From: Actinomycetota bacterium
GTDB lineage: Bacteria; Actinomycetota; Thermoleophilia; Miltoncostaeales; Miltoncostaeaceae
Assembly: GCA_016870155.1 (NCBI GenBank)
Contig: VGCE01000010.1
Span: 1-60,670, forward strand
Length of the DNA: 60,670 bases
Reading direction: 5' to 3'
Positions 27,671 through 36,627 of this stretch are shown piece by piece. The notes under the pieces were generated by a model. It ran no database searches, had not been told where the DNA came from, and worked only from the letters and a program-made list of their open reading frames with translations. Position numbers and translations under genes: made by a program. Each line of letters starts with the position of its first letter. The first letter of the stretch is position 1.

Positions 27671-28081
27671 TCAGTCGGGGGTCGCCGCCGCCCTGATCCA
27701 GTCTGGCACGGGCACGGGGGTGCGCCCCTCGCGCTCGATGCACACGTGCACCAGCTCGCCCTCGGCGCAGAGCTCATCGCCGCGCAAGAACCGGTGCCGG
27801 CTGCGGAATGACGTGGTGCCCACGCCCCCCACCGAGGTCTCGATGGTGATCATGTCGTCGAGCAGCATGCGCGTGTCGAACCGGCAGCGGGTATCGACGA
27901 CCGGGATTCCCACCCCCTCCTCCAGCAGCCGGGTGAACGGCCAGTCCATGTCGGCAAGCCACTCGCTGAGGCCGCGATCCATCCACCGGTAGGCCGCGGT
28001 GAAGTGGATCTGGCTCACGTCAACCTCGGCCATCACGATGCGGCGGATCTCGCGGCGGATGTGCGGCGAGGGGGCGCTCAT
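27671..28081 (-). CDS. Acyl-CoA thioesterase, hotdog fold (YbgC/4HBT-like)
   Basis: The 136-residue single-hotdog protein has VDVSQIHFTAAYRWMDRGLS, where family members have an active-site Asp in a D-x3-H type segment. The strands RFDTRMLLDDMITIETSV, FRSRHRFLRGDELCAEGEL and VHVCIEREGR follow. It probably hydrolyses acyl-CoA thioesters. ATG 28081 has AGGAG (minus strand, 28092-28088) 6 bases upstream and a TAGGCT hexamer further up (28116-28111). It is the first gene of a minus-strand run continuing into the phosphatase-like and toxin-like genes. Confidence 0.82.
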   Translation of the reverse strand: MSAPSPHIRREIRRIVMAEVDVSQIHFTAAYRWMDRGLSEWLADMDWPFTRLLEEGVGIPVVDTRCRFDTRMLLDDMITIETSVGGVGTTSFRSRHRFLRGDELCAEGELVHVCIEREGRTPVPVPDWIRAAATPD

Positions 28082-28227
28082 GCGGGGCTCCTGCGGCAGG
28101 TCACGGGGCCAGCCTACGCCGCTTTTTCCCGCAACGAGCGCCCCGGTGCCTGACACGTAACCGTTCGCGGGGGGAGCAAACGGCGCGCCCGGGCGTTGGT
28201 GCAACACGTGCTGCCGGAACCTCGGCA

Positions 28228-28243
28228 TGCAATTCCCATTGCA
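28228..28243. promoter_or_regulatory. Inverted repeat upstream of the sigma-factor gene
   Basis: TGCAAT-TCCC-ATTGCA is a perfect 6-bp-arm palindrome 47 bases before the sigma-factor start, in the 209-base spacer shared with the divergent thioesterase gene. It could be an operator or a small hairpin. No autoregulatory ECF promoter was identified with confidence. Confidence 0.35.
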
Positions 28244-28290
28244 CAGGAGCAGCTGTGGCGCCATATTTCCCAGCCCACCACACCCCCTGA

Positions 28291-29736
28291 ATGCACACCC
28301 CAGGCCCTGACACCCCGCGGCTGGCCACCCCCGTGGCCGGCGAGAGCGACGCCGACGCCCGTCGCAGGCTCTGTCTTGCGGCCATGGCCGGCGCCCCGGG
28401 CCTGCTGCGCTACGCCGCCCGATTCGCCCCCACGCTCGAGGACGCCGAGGACGCCTACCAGCGCGGCATGGAGGTCGCGCTCACCAAGGGGCCCATTGGC
28501 ACCCGGGACGAGTTCATCGCGTGGCTGCACGTGGTCATCCGCAACGAGGCCACCACCTTGGCCCGGCGCAGCGGCCGCGAGACCCCCGCCGGCGACGAAA
28601 TCCAGGTGGCGGTGGACTCCCGCACCCGCGAGTCCCGCGAGCCCGCAGCCGTGGCCGAATGGCGCGAGCGCTACCGCACGCTGCAGGACGCCATGACATC
28701 GCTCAACGAGGCCGAGCGGGTGTGCCTGCTGCTTCGCACCGCCGGGGTGAGCCGCGCCGAGATCGGGTCGATGACCGGCTACACCGACCGCAAGGTGGAG
28801 CGCTCGATCGTGCGCGCCCGCAAGCGCCTGCACGCGTGGCACCTCGACCTGGCCCGGGGCGAGAAGTGCCAGAAGGTGCAGGACGCGCTGGAGCGCGTGG
28901 CCGACCACGAGGCCGACGATCGCGACCGGCGCATGGTGTCGAAGCATGTGCGCCACTGCGGCGCGTGCCGGGCCGCGCTCAGGTCGCGCCGCGAGACCAA
29001 CGCCGGCATCACCGTGCTGGTGCCCGTGGCCGTGGTGGGTGCTGCGGCGGCGGGCCTCGCAGTGCCCGACCCGAGCCCGGCCATGGGCGTGGTGGAGCGC
29101 GGCGCCACCCGCATTACCGTGTCGGTGGGGCAGGCCTGGCAGGCGATGCTCGACCTCCCCTCCCTCATGAGCGCCCGCATGGGCGCCGGCGCCGTGGCCA
29201 TCACCGTGGCGGGCTTCGCGGGCGTGCCCATCGTCGCCAAGACCGTGAGCGACGGCCAGCGCCAGGCCACCCAGCCCGTTGCCGCCCAGGTGCGCACCGT
29301 CGCCGACGCCTCGGGCGTGAGCACGGTCGCCGCGCCTGACGCCGGCGGAGCGGCAGGCGTGGCGGGGGCCGGCACGGCAGCGCCGGGATCCACGGTGCCC
29401 GGCACCGACCCGCACGGCACCGCGACGGTGCCCGGCGGCGCGGTCGGGAGCGGCGCGGCCCGAGGCACAGCGGCCCCGGGCGCAGCCGGACCCACCAGCG
29501 CCGCACAGGCCGACGCCATCGCCCAGATGCACCGCCTGCGGGCGCAGGCCGCGCAGCGGCGACGCGCAGCCGAGGCCGAGGCGCGCAAGGCGCGTGAGCA
29601 ACGGGAGGCCGCCGCGCGCGAGCGCGCCGCCGGGCGCCAGAGCGGCGCCGGCAGCGCATCGAGCGGGGCGTCCTCACGTCGATCCACCCCCGCCGCGAGC
29701 CCCGCGGCGCAACCGCAGCTGGAGTTCGGACCATGA
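28291..29736 (+). CDS. ECF sigma factor fused to anti-sigma-like zinc motif and hydrophobic segments
   Basis: The 481-residue protein contains sigma region 2 (LLRYAARFAPTLEDAEDAYQ to DEFIAWLHVVIRNEA, about 38-90) and region 4 (LNEAERVCLLLRTAGVSRAE to KVERSIVRARKRL, about 138-180). It continues into a zf-HC2 motif H219-x3-C223-x2-C226 (KHVRHCGACRAAL), the signature of zinc anti-sigma domains. Hydrophobic segments at about 240-257 and 299-316 may be membrane helices. A Gly/Ala/Pro-rich linker and a charged helix (about 405-450) end the protein. A tethered, self-inhibited regulator is the inferred design. The stop overlaps the next start (ATGA). Confidence 0.85.
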   Translation: MHTPGPDTPRLATPVAGESDADARRRLCLAAMAGAPGLLRYAARFAPTLEDAEDAYQRGMEVALTKGPIGTRDEFIAWLHVVIRNEATTLARRSGRETPAGDEIQVAVDSRTRESREPAAVAEWRERYRTLQDAMTSLNEAERVCLLLRTAGVSRAEIGSMTGYTDRKVERSIVRARKRLHAWHLDLARGEKCQKVQDALERVADHEADDRDRRMVSKHVRHCGACRAALRSRRETNAGITVLVPVAVVGAAAAGLAVPDPSPAMGVVERGATRITVSVGQAWQAMLDLPSLMSARMGAGAVAITVAGFAGVPIVAKTVSDGQRQATQPVAAQVRTVADASGVSTVAAPDAGGAAGVAGAGTAAPGSTVPGTDPHGTATVPGGAVGSGAARGTAAPGAAGPTSAAQADAIAQMHRLRAQAAQRRRAAEAEARKAREQREAAARERAAGRQSGAGSASSGASSRRSTPAASPAAQPQLEFGP

Positions 29737-32198
29737 GCAATCCACCACGCAGGCCCCGTCCGCGCGCGCTCGCGCGCATCGCGCTGGCATCGGCCGGCGG
29801 CATCGGGCTGGCCCTCGCAGCCGCGCCTGGCGCGCTGGGCACCGACGGCAACCTCTATCCACAGGGCTCCGGCCCCTTCACCACCGGGTCGATGCTCGCG
29901 GCCAGCCAGCCGAACCCATCGGTGGTGCAGCTGAAGGCCGCCGCCACCACGGCCGCGCCCATCGGCACGCACTTCTCGATGGGATGGGGCTGCCCCGTCC
30001 CCGGCAGCGAGATCGCATCGGTGCAGTGGAGCGCCCTGCGCTACGCAGCGGCGTCCAGCGCCGGGCTGCAGGTGGTGGCCAACGGGCAGCCGGTGTGGGC
30101 CGAGGGCGACGTCGGCATTCCGCAGTCGCCGGCAGGTGGGCGCGGCTACGGGCTGGGGCTCCCCGGCGGCACGTGCGACGTGAAGCTGGAGCTCGTGCAG
30201 GGCGAGCGCCGTCAGCAGCACGCGCGGGTATGGTGGATCGGCAGCACGGGGGCGGTCATCCGCGACGTCGCGCCGCCCAGCGCCCAGGTGGTGAGCACCC
30301 CGGCCGGGTGGCTCAACGCATCGCAGGGTGCCGCGCGCGTGGGCTGGCAGGCGGCCGACAACTTCGGCAGCGATGGCATCACCGGCCAGCGCGTGAAGGT
30401 TGCCGGCGAGACCCGCTGGGCCGGAGCGCCCGGGCAGGGCCAGCACGGGGCCGACGTGTCGCTGGCGGGGCTGCCCGACGGCGCCCACACGGTGCGCGTG
30501 GAGGTGGACGGAGACGGCACCGGGGGCGCGGCGTCCGAGAGCACCCTGCGCATCGACCGCACCGCGCCCGACCTGGGCGAGCCCGAGGTCGCCTACACGC
30601 CGGGCACCACGCGCGGGCAGCTGGCGTTCTCGGCCAACGACTCCACGAGTGGCCTGCAGGCCGCGCGCGCCGAGGTGAACACCATGCCCAACGGCGCCAC
30701 CACGGGGTCGTGGGTGCCGGTGGCCAGCGTGGGCGCGGCCTCGGCCGGCCAGCGCGTCACCCGCGCGGTGGGCGCGGGTCTCACCGACGGCCTGCACGCA
30801 TGGCGCGTGATGGCATCCGACCAGGCCGGCAACGCCACCGAGCAGCTCGCGCCCGAGCACATGGTGGTGGACACCCAGCCGCCGCGCATCGGCCTGCAGC
30901 CCATCCCGCCCGCATGGACATCCGTGCTGCCGCTGCAGATGACCCTGAGCGACAACCTCGACCAGTACATCGGCCTCGGTGACTTCGAGGCCGAGATCAA
31001 CACCGCGGGCGACGGCAGCACGCGTGGCGATTGGATTCCCGTGGCGCAGGAGGCCCTGGCCCCCGGCTACACCCAGATGCAGGTGCCGCTCACAGGCCTT
31101 GCAGACGGCGTGCACGTGGTGCGCCTGCGGCTGCGAAACGGCGGCCCCTTCGCGCAGACGCTCGTGGCCACCCGCCTCAGCCTGGTGCGCACCGACCTCA
31201 CGCCCCCCGACATAGCGCGGGCGTCGCTCATCACCCAGCCCGACGGCAGGGTGAAGATGACCTGGACGGCCGAGGACGCCCGATCGGGAGTCGACCGCGT
31301 GCGCCTGCAGTGGCTCGACGGCTGGACCTGGCGCATTCTCACGCAGCTGCCCGCGTCCGATGGCAGCGGCATCGCCGCCATCGACCCCGACCTCTTGCCC
31401 GACCCCGGCACCCGCCTCCGCGTGCAGCTGGCCGACGCCGCGGGCAATACCCGCGCGCTCGAGGTGGAGCCCCCGGCGCGCACGCGCCCCGGATCGCCAT
31501 CGCCCGATGCCCCCTCGCGCCCCGGTGCCACCCCGGCACAGCAGATGGCCGACACCGCCCGCGAGGGAATGCTCACCCTGGGCATCCGCAACGGCGTGCC
31601 CGAACGCGTGGAAGGCCGCGACTACAGGGTGGTCAAGCTCGCGGCGGGCAAGCCCGTCACCATCACCGGCCGCCTGCTCAACCGCCAGGGCCAGGCGCTC
31701 GCCGGGTTCACCATGGTGGCCCGCCAGAGCGGCCGCGATCTCGGCGCCGCCATCACCGGCCCCGACGGCGCGTTCGTCATCACGGCCGTGCCCATCCGCA
31801 CCGGACCCATTGACGTCGGCGTGCCCGACGGATCGAAGGTGGTGCCCGTGCCCACCGGCCCGGGCGTGGCCGTGCGCCTGCGCGCCACCGTCACCCTCAG
31901 CGCGTCGCGCACCGAGACAAGCGCCAGGGGGGCACCGGTGACCTTCAAGGGCAAGATGTCGCCGGCCCCGGGCGCCGAGGGCGGCCGCAAGGCGATCGTG
32001 CTCGAGTGGCTCGACCCCTTCCGCAAGGCGTGGCGTCCGGTGGTGAACGCCCGGGCCGCTGCCGACGGATCGTTCCAGATCCGCTGGCGCTTCCACGCCA
32101 GCGGGCTCACCGTGCCCTTCCGGGTACGCGTGCCGCGCGAGCGCGGGTGGATGATCGAGCCGGGCAGCTCGCCCGTCATCACGGTGAGGGTGCGATAG
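29733..32198 (+). CDS. Large exported Ig-like repeat protein
   Basis: The 821-residue protein has a signal peptide (ARIALASAGGIGLALAAAPG with AxA-like cleavage near 35). Several beta-sandwich units follow, marked by DRTAPDLGEPEVAY, DTQPPRIGLQP and DLTPPDIARASL, which are typical starts of bacterial Ig-like modules with SGVDRVRL-type strands. A Pro-rich hinge (about 580-610) leads to two carboxypeptidase-regulatory or Ig-like domains (KPVTITGRLLNRQGQALAGF and GAPVTFKGKMSP). No LPXTG or membrane anchor is seen. It overlaps the sigma-fusion gene by four bases, so it is probably the product that regulator controls or monitors. Confidence 0.8.
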   Translation: MSNPPRRPRPRALARIALASAGGIGLALAAAPGALGTDGNLYPQGSGPFTTGSMLAASQPNPSVVQLKAAATTAAPIGTHFSMGWGCPVPGSEIASVQWSALRYAAASSAGLQVVANGQPVWAEGDVGIPQSPAGGRGYGLGLPGGTCDVKLELVQGERRQQHARVWWIGSTGAVIRDVAPPSAQVVSTPAGWLNASQGAARVGWQAADNFGSDGITGQRVKVAGETRWAGAPGQGQHGADVSLAGLPDGAHTVRVEVDGDGTGGAASESTLRIDRTAPDLGEPEVAYTPGTTRGQLAFSANDSTSGLQAARAEVNTMPNGATTGSWVPVASVGAASAGQRVTRAVGAGLTDGLHAWRVMASDQAGNATEQLAPEHMVVDTQPPRIGLQPIPPAWTSVLPLQMTLSDNLDQYIGLGDFEAEINTAGDGSTRGDWIPVAQEALAPGYTQMQVPLTGLADGVHVVRLRLRNGGPFAQTLVATRLSLVRTDLTPPDIARASLITQPDGRVKMTWTAEDARSGVDRVRLQWLDGWTWRILTQLPASDGSGIAAIDPDLLPDPGTRLRVQLADAAGNTRALEVEPPARTRPGSPSPDAPSRPGATPAQQMADTAREGMLTLGIRNGVPERVEGRDYRVVKLAAGKPVTITGRLLNRQGQALAGFTMVARQSGRDLGAAITGPDGAFVITAVPIRTGPIDVGVPDGSKVVPVPTGPGVAVRLRATVTLSASRTETSARGAPVTFKGKMSPAPGAEGGRKAIVLEWLDPFRKAWRPVVNARAAADGSFQIRWRFHASGLTVPFRVRVPRERGWMIEPGSSPVITVRVR

Positions 32199-32237: not shown

Positions 32238-32465
32238 CTGGCCGCGCGCACCATCTCGATCACCGATGTGAAGGCCAACCTGCTCGCGCTCGTCACCGAG
32301 GTGGGCGACACCGGCGACGAGATCGTGACCACTCGCAGGGGGCGGCCGGTCGCGCGCCTGGTGCGCGCGGCATCGGAGCACCCGCTCAAGGGATCGCTCG
32401 TGCTGCCCGATGACATGGCGGCCTACGACCTCTGCGCGGAGTGGGCGGGCAGCGACCTGGCATGA
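32238..32465 (+). CDS. Phd/YefM-type antitoxin (apparent CTG start)
   Basis: The 75-residue protein reads AARTISITDVKANLLALVTE then EIVTTRRGRPVARLVRA, the classic Phd/YefM DNA-binding fold, and ends in a toxin-binding tail. The first beta strand (TISITDVKANL) is needed for the fold but lies upstream of the only standard start (GTG 32268). The frame is closed by TGA at 32226-32228. CTG 32238, 4 bases after GAGGAGG (32227-32233), is therefore the likely start. The stop overlaps the toxin ATG (ATGA). Confidence 0.75.
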   Translation: MAARTISITDVKANLLALVTEVGDTGDEIVTTRRGRPVARLVRAASEHPLKGSLVLPDDMAAYDLCAEWAGSDLA

Positions 32466-32890
32466 GCGACGGGTGCGTGCTCGACACCTACCCCTGGCTT
32501 CACCTCATCGAGGACACCGGGCGCATCCCCCGCGCGGCGCGGAGGCTGATCGACGCAGGAATCACGCTGCATGTGCCAGCCATGTGCATGTGGGAGGTCG
32601 CGATGCTGCTCGAGTGAGGACGCCTGAGGATCAACGACCCCGGCATGAGCGCCGAGCGCTGGCTGCGGGCGGCCCTGGCGGCCCCGTACGAGATCGCACC
32701 CCTCACGCCCCGCATCGCGGCGTGTGCTGCCGACCTCGGGCGCGAGGGCTTCCATGGCGACCCCGCCGACCACATGGTCCACGCGACGGCGCGGGTGATG
32801 GACCTTCCGCTCATCACGGGTGACGAGCAGAGCCAATCGTTCGAGAAGAGCCTGCCGCGGCGCAGCCGTCGCCTCGCCGTGTGGGACTGA
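32462..32890 (+). pseudogene. PIN-domain (VapC-like) toxin interrupted by TGA
   Basis: The reading frame encodes CVLDTYPWLHLIED (first acidic residue of the PIN site), MCMWEVAMLLE, then TGA at 32615-32617. It continues in the same frame with GRLRINDPGMSAERWLRAAL, IAPLTPRIA and GDPADHMVHATARVMDLPLITGDE, which complete a PIN nuclease of about 142 residues. A single nonsense codon breaks an otherwise intact gene. It may be a recent mutation, an assembly error or, less likely, read-through. It is coupled to the Phd-like antitoxin and meets the phosphoesterase gene tail to tail. Confidence 0.75.
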
Positions 32891-32907
32891 CTCCGGTTCG
32901 GACCGAC

Positions 32908-34230
32908 CTAGCGAACCACGGCAGTGGCAGCCGACCGCGCCGTGGCGACGGTGCCGCCCACGGGGGTCACGCGCACGCTGGCGGTGGCCCACACGCGCTG
33001 GCCGGCGCGCATCACACGCGCAGCTGATGCGCCCAGAGCGACCTGCACCGTGGTGCGCGTGGGCAGCGATCCATCTGCGGCCACCCGCACGGTGGCAACC
33101 CCGCGGCCCAACGTGGCCCCGCGCACCGAGCGGCGGATCGTCACCGCCGCGCGCACCGTGGCCCCCTGCGGGGCGCGACCGCCGAGCGACACCCTGACGG
33201 GCACGCTCACCCGGCGCGCGCCCAAGCGCAGCACCGTGCGTGCGGCCACGCGGGCGGTCATCGAGGCGACGGCCTGCGTGGCACCGGCCACCGCCCCCTG
33301 CCCGGCCGCCTCACCTGATCCATTCCCATCGGGCTCGAGGGTGAGCACGTCACGCACCACGCCGTCCACCGACAGCACCTGCGCGGTGAGCAGCGTGTCG
33401 GTGGCCGTGATGCGCATGGCGCCGTTCGACCCGCTGTAGTGCGCCCGGCTCTCGGCCACCGCCGCGGCGGGGAAGGCCGTCACCGACTGCCCGCCGATAC
33501 CGTTCACCACGTAGGGAAGCCCGCCGACCTCGAGTCGCTCGTAGTAGTGGTCGTGGCCGTTCAGCACCAGGTCGGCGCCCCACTCGCGGAAGGGCCAGCG
33601 CATGCCCGGATACGGCCCGCGCGCGCTCGAGGTGTAGGGCGGGTGGTGCAGGGCCACCACCTTGAAGGGGGCGTTGGACGCCGCCATGGCCGGCTGCAGC
33701 CAGGCCTTCTGCGCGGCCATGTCCGATGCGTTGCGAAGGGCCTCATCGGAGTCGAGCATGAAGAAGTGCACGGGGCCGATGCGCACGTCGTACCAGCGCT
33801 CGTTGCCGGGCAGCGAGAAGTAGCTCAGGTAGTTGGAGATGCCGGCGTCGGAGTATTCGTGGTTGCCCGCGATCGGCCACAGCCGGTTGGTCACCGCCGT
33901 GCCACCCGCGCAGTTGGGCCCGCTGGCCACGCCGGCGAGGAAGCCGCAGTAGTACTTGCCCACCGTGCGGTCGTACTTGCCCGTGCCCGTGCCGCCGGCC
34001 GACGAATAGTAGTTGTCGCCCAGCAGCACCAGGTGGTCGGGGCCCCACCCGGCAACCATCGACGCCACCGCGGCCTGGTTGGCGTTGTCCACGCCGGGAT
34101 CGCCGATCACGCCGATCTCCATGGCGCCCAGTGCCGGCGTCGCGGCGGAGGCCAGCGCGCAGGCAATAATGCCCGCCGCAGCCGCCAGCGCGCGGATTGC
34201 ACCGCGGCCACCCCGTTCTCGCCTTCCCAT
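32908..34230 (-). CDS. Secreted metallophosphoesterase
   Basis: The 440-residue exported protein has an N-terminal signal (IRALAAAAGIIACALASAAT-type core) and a calcineurin-like domain. All metal-binding blocks are present: GDPGVDN, GDNYYSS, GNHEYSD, HHPPYTS and GHDHYYER, as in acid phosphatases of the purple type. The C-terminal 150 residues form a beta-rich domain with repeated Ala/Val/Thr/Arg strands (VRVSLGGRAPQGATVRAAV). ATG 34230 is chosen to place the signal peptide at the N-terminus. It probably releases phosphate from esters outside the cell. Confidence 0.88.
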   Translation of the reverse strand: MGRRERGGRGAIRALAAAAGIIACALASAATPALGAMEIGVIGDPGVDNANQAAVASMVAGWGPDHLVLLGDNYYSSAGGTGTGKYDRTVGKYYCGFLAGVASGPNCAGGTAVTNRLWPIAGNHEYSDAGISNYLSYFSLPGNERWYDVRIGPVHFFMLDSDEALRNASDMAAQKAWLQPAMAASNAPFKVVALHHPPYTSSARGPYPGMRWPFREWGADLVLNGHDHYYERLEVGGLPYVVNGIGGQSVTAFPAAAVAESRAHYSGSNGAMRITATDTLLTAQVLSVDGVVRDVLTLEPDGNGSGEAAGQGAVAGATQAVASMTARVAARTVLRLGARRVSVPVRVSLGGRAPQGATVRAAVTIRRSVRGATLGRGVATVRVAADGSLPTRTTVQVALGASAARVMRAGQRVWATASVRVTPVGGTVATARSAATAVVR

Positions 34231-34256
34231 GCCCGAGCACGGGGAGACCGCAGCAC

Positions 34257-35648
34257 TCACGGCGCGTAGCGCACGATCGGCTGTCCAACGCCCTCCGACA
34301 GCGTGGCGTAAGAGGTGCACGAGGCGTCCACGGCGATGGCCTCCCCCTGCGGCTCGCGCACGTACGGACGCTCGTCGCCCGGCGCAAGCAGCGCGGCACC
34401 GATGCCACCGACCGACTCATGCACGCGCACGGCGTCGTAGGTCTTCACCACCACCGTGGTGCCGTCCGCGCAGGCGTCAGCACCCACCACCCCGCCGTAG
34501 GCCATCTCGCCCACCAGTTGCATTACGCCCGACCCGGCCGCCACCTGCGCCGCGCTCGCGCGGTACACCCGCGATCGCGCCTCGCGCTTGCTCACCACGT
34601 AGAGATCTCCCGTGGTGCGGTCGGCCACGACGGCCTCGGCGTCCCGTGCTCCGTCCGGGTACGAGAGGCGGATGACCTGCGGAGCCACCGCGGCGAGCGT
34701 GCTGCCATCAGGCACGCCCCATAGCGACGGCTCGGCCACGCGGTAGATCCGCACGCCCGACCTCACCGCGGCGTTGTCACCGACGTCGGCGATGAACAGC
34801 GCGTCCATGCCATCCGCCGTGGTGCCCAGCGCGATGTCCTCGATGTCGGTGGCGCTCACGCCGGCGAGAGGAACGCTCGCTCGCGTGGTGCCGCTCCACC
34901 CGACGGCAAACACCCGGGCTGTATCGCCGCTGTCGTTGTGGGTCCAGAGCAGGTTGTCCTGCGTGCGGCTCCAGGCCAGCCCGGAGGCCTCCACCACGGG
35001 TGCGCCCACCGCTCCGAACACCGTGCGGGTAGTGCCCGCAAGTCGAGCCGGCGCGGGCGCCGGATCGCGGCCGGGTTCCGGCATCGGGGCTGCGTCGGGC
35101 GCGCCGGGGTCCTGTGGCGCAGGGGGGTCGGGAGTCGAACCGGGGAGCGCGACTTCATCTGGCGACTCGTCATCGGCCGCCCTGAGGGCATCGTCGTCCG
35201 GGCGCAGGGGCGCCCCCAACACCTTGGCGGTCACCGCTCGACCGATCGGCCGTTCTGCGCGCACCGCCACCCGAGCCTCGAGGGCGTCACCGCGCGGCAC
35301 CCGGCAGTCGACGAGTGCCGCGCGCGCGAGGGGCACTCGCAGATTCACCGCACCGGCGCGAGGCACCACACGAAGGGCATGCCCGACCACTTGGCCGGTG
35401 GATTCCTGCCTCACCGTTACGTCGACGCGAGACGCGCGCCTCGGAATGCCCGATACGCGAACGCGCAGCCACGCTGACGCCGCTCGGCACGCGGGTGCAT
35501 CGGCCTTCGCGCGCATGCCCTGCAGGGATACCGCTGAGGCCTCGTCCATCACGCCCGGCGCCATCACGAGCGCTGCGGACGACAGCAGGGCTACCGATGC
35601 CGCAGCGAAGCAGGTGCGAGGAGGACGATGGGCGTGGCGGAGGGCCAT
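34257..35648 (-). CDS. Secreted beta-propeller-like protein
   Basis: The 463-residue protein has a signal segment (CFAAASVALLSSAALVMAPG) and a beta-sandwich region with Cys residues (about 40-150). A Pro/Asp-rich linker (about 155-195) leads to a propeller-like domain: VEASGLAWSRTQDNLLWTHN, DIEDIALG, ALFIADVGDN, RDAEAVVADRTTGDLYVVSK and EAIAVD. The Asp-rich loops recall phytase-like or SMP-30-type propellers, but no exact activity can be assigned. ATG 35648 is preferred; earlier in-frame Met residues give an implausible N-terminus. It precedes the metallophosphoesterase gene on the same strand with a 26-base gap. Confidence 0.75.
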   Translation of the reverse strand: MALRHAHRPPRTCFAAASVALLSSAALVMAPGVMDEASAVSLQGMRAKADAPACRAASAWLRVRVSGIPRRASRVDVTVRQESTGQVVGHALRVVPRAGAVNLRVPLARAALVDCRVPRGDALEARVAVRAERPIGRAVTAKVLGAPLRPDDDALRAADDESPDEVALPGSTPDPPAPQDPGAPDAAPMPEPGRDPAPAPARLAGTTRTVFGAVGAPVVEASGLAWSRTQDNLLWTHNDSGDTARVFAVGWSGTTRASVPLAGVSATDIEDIALGTTADGMDALFIADVGDNAAVRSGVRIYRVAEPSLWGVPDGSTLAAVAPQVIRLSYPDGARDAEAVVADRTTGDLYVVSKREARSRVYRASAAQVAAGSGVMQLVGEMAYGGVVGADACADGTTVVVKTYDAVRVHESVGGIGAALLAPGDERPYVREPQGEAIAVDASCTSYATLSEGVGQPIVRYAP

Positions 35649-35762
35649 GCGCGCATGCTCCCGCCCCCCGAACGGGTTGCAGCGTAAACGCCCCCGGTTC
35701 ATACCTTTTCGCAACAAATAACTTGCGGGCGGATCACGCATCGCCCCCGCGCGCCCGGCCAC

Positions 35763-35775
35763 TACCCTCCCGCGC
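35763..35775 (+). promoter_or_regulatory. Leaderless -10 element of the moxR-like gene
   Basis: TACCCT (35763-35768) is followed by 7 bases and the ATG at 35776. The hexamer is the same as the one before the gene at 10832 and the methyltransferase at 49091. No -35 could be assigned with confidence. Confidence 0.5.

Positions 35776-36627
<852 letters not shown>

What the first reader, a model, noticed from the sequence alone, without database searches (positions are those of the whole stretch)
28291..32198. Single-chain sigma/anti-sigma fusion translationally coupled to a large exported Ig-like protein
One polypeptide carries sigma regions 2 and 4, an H-x3-C-x2-C anti-sigma zinc motif, two possible membrane helices and a long extracytoplasmic-type tail with a charged helix. 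Its stop overlaps the start of an 821-residue exported multi-domain protein. The simplest reading is a membrane-tethered, self-restrained sigma factor whose partner or target is the exported protein. This is my best candidate for an undescribed system here.
Basis: partly seen in the sequence, partly recalled or inferred. Interest (0 to 1): 0.68.

Follow-up and report, generated by a model that had tools for sequence, protein, structure and literature searches.

The report
Self-inhibited sigma factor with exported partner
A gene switch (sigma factor), its own inhibitor and a membrane tether are fused into one protein that is conserved across a class of little-studied soil and freshwater bacteria, ends in a short conserved tail peptide, and often sits directly before a gene for a large secreted immunoglobulin-like protein; fusions of this sort are known, but the tail peptide and the coupled partner were not found described.

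Summary
28291-29736 encodes a 481-aa ECF sigma factor (regions 2 and 4) fused to a zinc anti-sigma domain (zf-HC2, C-x25-H-x3-C-x2-C, all four ligands invariant), a hydrophobic segment and a low-complexity tail. Its stop overlaps by 4 nt the start of an exported 821-aa all-beta Ig-like protein. The host is a 1.8-Mb Miltoncostaeales genome (Thermoleophilia).

The pair is conserved through the genus and most genera of the family. In part of Solirubrobacterales the fusion is followed by exported Big_13/CarboxypepD_reg proteins, many sharing the partner's C-terminal domain. In a phylum sample, strong fusion hits were confined to Thermoleophilia.

New here: the otherwise unalignable tail ends in EF[GAS]P-COOH in 37 of 62 complete relatives. 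Eleven of these have no start codon over the stop, so this is selection on the peptide.

Fused ECF/ZAS/membrane proteins are already known (ECF48/52/53; IutY), so this is a new variant of a known kind. Best reading: a membrane-tethered, self-inhibited sigma factor released by regulated proteolysis, with the tail as an extracytoplasmic sensing or docking handle. Proteolysis, topology, signal and physical contact with the partner are inferred. Only the second hydrophobic segment is hydrophobic class-wide, so the "two helices" claim is doubtful.

The parts
28216..28241 (+). putative ECF-type promoter upstream of the fusion: GGAAC-N16-CATTG, about 50 nt before the start codon
   Evidence: GGAAC kept in 12 of 13 aligned upstream regions of the genus, and a C[GA]TT-like -10 in most. 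Inference; not seen conserved in other genera.
28291..29736 (+). sigma/anti-sigma fusion protein, 481 aa
28396..28578 (+). sigma-70 region 2 (residues 36-96)
   Evidence: Pfam PF04542, 7.6e-7; well modelled
28678..28830 (+). sigma-70 region 4 (residues 130-180)
   Evidence: Pfam PF08281, 3.6e-7; Foldseek matches ECF sigma factors
28867..28971 (+). zinc anti-sigma domain core, C193-x25-H219-x3-C223-x2-C226
   Evidence: Pfam zf-HC2; ligands invariant in 48 relatives; profile matches RsiW, 5wuq, E 5.5e-4
29008..29064 (+). first hydrophobic segment (residues 240-258, invariant Pro245); more likely part of the anti-sigma helix than a membrane span
   Evidence: KD mean 2.26 in the genus but 1.27 in other relatives; modelled in helix 224-253
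29179..29235 (+). second hydrophobic segment (residues 297-315), the likely membrane span
   Evidence: hydrophobic in nearly all class-wide relatives, KD mean 1.96 in the genus and 1.67 in others; not modelled with confidence
29236..29733 (+). low-complexity Ala/Pro/Ser/Thr/Gly-rich tail with a charged helix (residues 404-450 = 29500-29640)
29722..29733 (+). conserved C-terminal peptide E-F-G-P-COOH
   Evidence: 37 of 62 complete relatives end in EF[GAS]P; only such terminus in this genome
29721..29736 (+). GGAG Shine-Dalgarno-like site (29721-29724) inside the tail codons and ATGA stop/start overlap (29733-29736)
29733..32198 (+). exported multi-domain Ig-like protein, 821 aa, signal peptide-like start, no membrane anchor at its C end, no catalytic domain found
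29841..30272 (+). N-terminal beta domain of the exported protein (residues 37-180); profile hits only inside Miltoncostaeales
30273..31532 (+). about four Ig-like beta-sandwich domains (residues 181-600)
   Evidence: weak Big_13; all-beta model, pLDDT 83.5
31545..32195 (+). C-terminal part (residues 605-821; CarboxypepD_reg-like plus a final beta domain), homologous to partners in Solirubrobacterales
   Evidence: profile hits 1e-10 to 1e-13, each in or next to the gene behind a fusion; whole-genome hits G089, G080, G097 beside the fusion

Best explanation
A membrane-tethered, self-inhibited ECF sigma factor. (1) Shown by sequence: one chain holds sigma regions 2 and 4 followed by an RsrA/RsiW-type zinc anti-sigma domain, then a hydrophobic segment and a long flexible tail that ends in a conserved peptide. 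(2) Inferred: the anti-sigma domain clamps the sigma domain in cis, so the protein is silent at the membrane. (3) Inferred: the second hydrophobic segment spans the membrane once (N-in, C-out) and the tail reaches into or through the wall, where its terminal EFGP peptide is bound by an extracytoplasmic protein or protease; the coupled Ig-like protein is the best candidate partner in lineages that have it. (4) Inferred: loss or change of that contact lets a site-1 protease (the HtrA-PDZ or S41-PDZ peptidase of this genome) and the single M50 site-2 protease cut the protein, freeing sigma. (5) Inferred: freed sigma transcribes its own operon, and with it the exported protein, from a GGAAC-N16-C[GA]TT promoter, so that making the surface protein and sensing its state are linked.
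For: Domain hits above the curated cut-offs and invariant zinc ligands C193/H219/C223/C226; profile match to RsiW and ECF sigma structures. Universal hydrophobic segment about 70 residues after the zinc motif. Terminal EF[GAS]P in 37 of 62 relatives against about 9e-5 per protein expected from tail composition, 11 of them without a start codon over the stop and with synonymous codon changes. Conserved 4-nt coupling to an exported Ig-like protein in the family and in part of Solirubrobacterales; whole-genome check: of six hits to the partner's C-terminal domain outside the family, three lie within about 2.5 kb of a fusion gene. Release machinery present: one M50-PDZ, one S41-PDZ, one HtrA-type Trypsin-PDZ protein. 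Precedent: IutY, a fused sigma/anti-sigma protein, is activated by Prc (S41) and RseP (M50) (PMC5411451); SCO4117 (ECF52) behaves as if released (PMC5826349); FoxA protects the anti-sigma factor FoxR by binding its extracytoplasmic C-terminal domain (PMC11637429).
Against: No experiment exists. Topology is unsettled: in this genus the first segment is even more hydrophobic than the second, and two spans would put the tail in the cytoplasm; flanking charges do not decide. AlphaFold leaves the second segment and the EFGP end unmodelled. The EFGP peptide also occurs where no Ig-like gene is adjacent (L096, L098, L101, L103, L104, L113, L119), and some lineages with a partner have a degenerate end (L111, L116), so EFGP need not bind the partner. 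The promoter is conserved only in the genus.
Confidence: 0.55

Rival explanations
1. Both hydrophobic segments span the membrane. The protein is a hairpin with both ends in the cytoplasm, and the Arg-rich tail with EFGP acts inside the cell, for example by binding the sigma domain, RNA polymerase or a cytoplasmic protease adaptor. The 40-residue loop between the segments would be the sensor.
For: In this genus segment 1 has KD 2.37 and segment 2 1.87; the tail has 18 K/R against 11 D/E; the residues before segment 1 are strongly positive. PMC8999054 states that ECF48/52/53 extensions have one to two transmembrane helices.
Against: Segment 1 is only weakly hydrophobic in most of the class (mean KD 1.27 against 1.67 for segment 2) and holds an invariant Pro; the tail is acidic in many Solirubrobacterales; the Ala/Pro/Ser/Thr/Gly-rich composition is typical of extracytoplasmic linkers.
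Confidence: 0.25
2. The exported protein is only a regulon target that shares the operon. It does not touch the fusion; the tail is read by something else, such as a cell-wall component or a tail-specific protease that recognises the C-terminal residues directly.
For: EFGP is kept in Thermoleophilaceae loci with no adjacent partner; the genome has an S41-PDZ peptidase, and Prc, of that family, is reported to recognise C-terminal residues.
Against: The coupling is old and recurrent, and in the Miltoncostaeales the partner's domains are conserved as one unit with the fusion.
Confidence: 0.3
3. The terminal EFGP is not a peptide signal but a by-product of the Shine-Dalgarno site and the ATGA overlap with the next gene.
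For: In Miltoncostaeales LEFGP is written CTGGAGTTCGGACCATGA, which contains GGAG eight bases before ATG.
Against: Eleven relatives with terminal EF[GAS]P end in TAG, TAA or CTGA with no start codon over the stop; Gly/Ala/Ser and Pro codons vary synonymously.
Confidence: 0.03

Closest known systems
ECF52 (SCO4117 of Streptomyces coelicolor; PMC5826349)
   Same: ECF sigma domain, zinc finger (PF13490), transmembrane region and proline-rich C-terminal extension in one actinobacterial protein; release by proteolysis proposed
   Different: ECF52 proteins end in a carbohydrate-binding domain; here no such domain, the tail ends in EFGP, and a separate exported Ig-like gene follows
ECF48 and ECF53 (PMC8999054)
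   Same: fused zinc anti-sigma domain and one to two transmembrane helices, Actinobacteria
   Different: group-defining models were not on hand; some ECF53 members carry glycosyl hydrolase or carbohydrate-binding domains (PMC10766802), absent here
IutY of Pseudomonas putida (ECF243; PMC5411451)
   Same: single-chain sigma/anti-sigma membrane protein; activation by Prc and RseP was shown experimentally
   Different: FecR-type periplasmic domain and TonB-dependent receptor partner; no zinc domain described, Gram-negative
RsrA/RsiW zinc anti-sigma factors
   Same: C-x25-H-x3-C-x2-C spacing as in RsrA (from memory), zf-HC2 fold, profile match to RsiW
   Different: separate proteins there; fused to their sigma factor here
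FoxR/FoxA cell-surface signalling (PMC11637429)
   Same: an extracytoplasmic partner binds the C-terminal domain of an anti-sigma protein and protects it from proteolysis; works-like analogy for the proposed partner
   Different: outer-membrane receptor and different folds; no homology claimed

Membership tests
ECF sigma factor (sigma-70 group IV) | regions 2 and 4 only, over curated cut-offs | tested here: met
   PF04542, PF08281 and TIGR02937 above cut-offs
Zinc anti-sigma (ZAS) domain | H-x3-C-x2-C plus an upstream zinc ligand, conserved | tested here: met
   invariant C193, H219, C223, C226 in 48 sequences; zf-HC2 above cut-off
ZAS domain | binds zinc and inhibits the sigma domain | not testable with these tools
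   needs protein chemistry
ECF52 | C-terminal carbohydrate-binding domain after a proline-rich region | tested here: not met
   no Pfam domain after the zinc finger; tail is low complexity ending in EFGP
ECF48 / ECF53 | membership of the published group by its profile | not testable with these tools
   group models not available; only the general architecture was compared through PMC8999054
Fused ECF/anti-sigma membrane proteins (general kind) | sigma and anti-sigma domains plus a membrane span in one chain | tested here: inconclusive
   the two domains met; a hydrophobic segment is present class-wide but membrane insertion was not measured
Activation by regulated intramembrane proteolysis | cleavage by a site-2 protease | not testable with these tools
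   only the presence of M50, S41 and HtrA-type peptidases was shown
Big_13 Ig-like exported proteins | Big_13 above cut-off | tested here: inconclusive
   window protein 23.9 bits against a cut-off of 27; homologue L084 42.8 bits

The most novel reading that the evidence does not exclude
A class-specific signalling module in Thermoleophilia: a membrane-tethered single-chain sigma/anti-sigma protein whose flexible tail presents a C-terminal EF[GAS]P peptide that is recognised outside the membrane by a co-translated Ig-like surface protein (or a dedicated protease), so that assembly or loss of the surface protein sets sigma activity.
Probability: 0.25. Interest if true: 0.7.

Novelty: new variant of a known kind. 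Interest (0 to 1): 0.5.

Why it matters
Little is known of how Thermoleophilia regulate their cell surface; three literature searches aimed at them or at such fusions found no work on these proteins. If right, this is a compact one-protein sensor with a defined terminal peptide and a genetically linked partner, which makes activation of fused ECF factors directly testable: delete four residues, delete one neighbour, delete one protease. The EF[GAS]P tail also offers a simple sequence mark for recognising the family.

Tried and rejected
EFGP as a by-product of the Shine-Dalgarno/ATGA overlap: rejected, because 11 relatives lack any start codon over the stop. EFGP as a common C-terminal signal in this genome: one match only, this gene (one search repeated it needlessly). 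Structure prediction to see whether EFGP docks on the sigma or zinc domain: no information, the tail is below pLDDT 50. Foldseek of the exported protein: only generic strings of Ig-like domains such as complement and alpha-2-macroglobulin, no function implied. Charge-based topology: not decisive. Regulon by promoter search in the whole genome: not run, because about ten chance matches were expected for the motif and only one genome could be scanned per call. Laying the whole genome in the Python box was not available. Paper searches naming Miltoncostaea or Solirubrobacter with ECF/anti-sigma terms gave nothing relevant; the library holds open-licence papers only, so earlier description in subscription papers or in the ECF classification itself cannot be excluded.
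Full report
WHAT IS THERE. The window is contig 10 of a 1.81-Mb, 98% complete genome. Relatives named by their records are Miltoncostaeales / Thermoleophilia MAGs, many with lake or bay sample names. Two genes overlap in ATGA: 28291-29736 (481 aa) and 29733-32198 (821 aa). The first has sigma-70 region 2, region 4 and zf-HC2, each over its Pfam cut-off, and a TIGR02937 ECF match. It is the only zf-HC2 gene in the genome. The second has a signal-peptide-like start, weak Big_13 and CarboxypepD_reg matches and an all-beta model of mean pLDDT 83.5. No catalytic domain was found, and its C end carries no membrane anchor.

CONSERVATION OF THE FUSION. The fusion has a match in 17 of 20 genomes of the genus and in 10 of 12 genera of the family. 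A genome-collection scan with the family alignment found 75 loci, most named as Thermoleophilia, Solirubrobacterales or Thermoleophilaceae. In a sample of 197 genomes of the phylum all strong hits were in this class, with one weak hit outside it. In 48 aligned relatives the zinc ligands C193, H219, C223 and C226 are invariant, as is Pro245 in the first hydrophobic segment. The profile matches ECF sigma structures and the RsiW anti-sigma factor. The model places ordered helices through residue 296, and Foldseek finds ECF sigma factors, several of them in complexes with anti-sigma factors.

TOPOLOGY. Only the second segment (297-315) is hydrophobic class-wide (mean Kyte-Doolittle 1.96 in the genus, 1.67 elsewhere); the first (240-258) averages 2.26 in the genus but 1.27 elsewhere, and is modelled as part of a helix that begins in the zinc motif. 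One span puts the tail outside; two spans put it inside. I favour one span, but flanking charges do not decide.

THE TAIL PEPTIDE. The tail is about 60% Ala/Pro/Ser/Thr/Gly and does not align between genera, yet its last residues do. Of 62 complete relatives with the zinc motif, 37 end exactly in EF[GAS]P; three more have EFxP within the last 12 residues; most of the others end in related strings such as AEMGLE or FGFE. Tail composition predicts about 9e-5 per protein. Relatedness inflates the count, but the ending spans Miltoncostaeales, Thermoleophilaceae and Solirubrobacterales. Eleven of the 37 have no start codon over the stop, and Gly, Ala/Ser and Pro codons vary synonymously. The loci were found through the sigma domain, not the tail. 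In this genome the coding pattern for terminal EF[GS]P occurs once, here. More distant fused paralogues in the class do not end this way, apart from one in the same family that ends in LFGP.

THE PARTNER. Next to the fusion, P0002 homologues are present in nearly all genus members where the contig allows a look, and in genera g8, g10, g11 and g12. Genera g5 and g6 have a shorter exported Ig-like protein there. In Solirubrobacterales eleven loci have a 670-990-residue exported protein directly downstream, mostly with a 4-nt overlap; those scanned match Big_13 and CarboxypepD_reg, and eight loci match the C-terminal profile of P0002 at 1e-10 to 1e-13. Among all ORFs in the 75 loci that profile hits only the gene or genes behind a fusion. 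In whole genomes outside the family, three of six hits to this domain lie within about 2.5 kb of a fusion (G089, G080, G097) and three do not (G093, G050, G075). The AEMGLE lineage and several Thermoleophilaceae have no such neighbour. The partner is therefore frequent and old, but not obligatory.

MECHANISM. Established: domain order, invariant zinc ligands, the coupling, the tail peptide, and the presence in this genome of one M50-PDZ, one S41-PDZ and one HtrA-type peptidase. Inferred: inhibition in cis, one membrane span, release by proteolysis, recognition of EFGP outside, and autoregulation from GGAAC-N16-C[GA]TT. The precedents are IutY, released by Prc and RseP (PMC5411451), SCO4117 (PMC5826349) and the protective binding of FoxR by FoxA (PMC11637429).

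NOVELTY. Fused ECF/zinc/membrane proteins are published: ECF48, ECF52 and ECF53 are described with a zinc finger and one to two transmembrane helices and are expected to be proteolytically activated (PMC8999054). ECF52's carbohydrate-binding domain is absent here, so it is not filed there; ECF48 and ECF53 membership could not be tested. The class-wide EF[GAS]P terminus and the translational coupling to Ig-like exported proteins were not found in the papers searched, which is limited evidence because only open-licence papers are held. Verdict: new variant of a known kind, interest 0.5.

Noticed in passing
window 32268-32893: A Phd/YefM-like antitoxin gene (32268-32465) is followed by a reading frame that looks like a PIN-type toxin (recognised by eye) but is interrupted by an in-frame TAG at 32615-32617: apparently a broken toxin-antitoxin pair.
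   Followed up: partly
window 28123-28140 and 28169-28180: Two further blocks (TTTTTCCCGC..CGAGCG and GGGGGGAGCAA) are strongly conserved upstream of the fusion across the genus; no function assigned. They lie between the fusion and a divergent thioesterase-like gene (27671-28264).
   Followed up: no
L099, L109, L111 (downstream of the fusion): In several Solirubrobacterales two large proteins of about 930-1140 residues lie in tandem behind the fusion; in L111 the second also matches the P0002 C-terminal profile.
   Followed up: partly
L114, L121, L122, L124-L126, L132, L136, L137: A lineage of Solirubrobacterales fusions ends in the invariant AEMGLE instead of EFGP and has no exported neighbour; its gene order is well conserved and different.
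   Followed up: no
G038 and G039 (same family): Extra P0002-like genes lie elsewhere in these genomes, far from the fusion genes found there, and these genomes also carry weaker paralogous fusions.
   Followed up: no
L074, L076, L081, L126, L136, L137: Public records titled 'Bifidobacterium breve isolate ...' carry Thermoleophilia genes; the organism names in these MAG titles are evidently wrong.
   Followed up: no
window 32908-35801: Two more probably exported proteins (a metallophosphoesterase with a C-terminal extension and a 514-aa protein with no Pfam match) lie nearby on the other strand.
   Followed up: no
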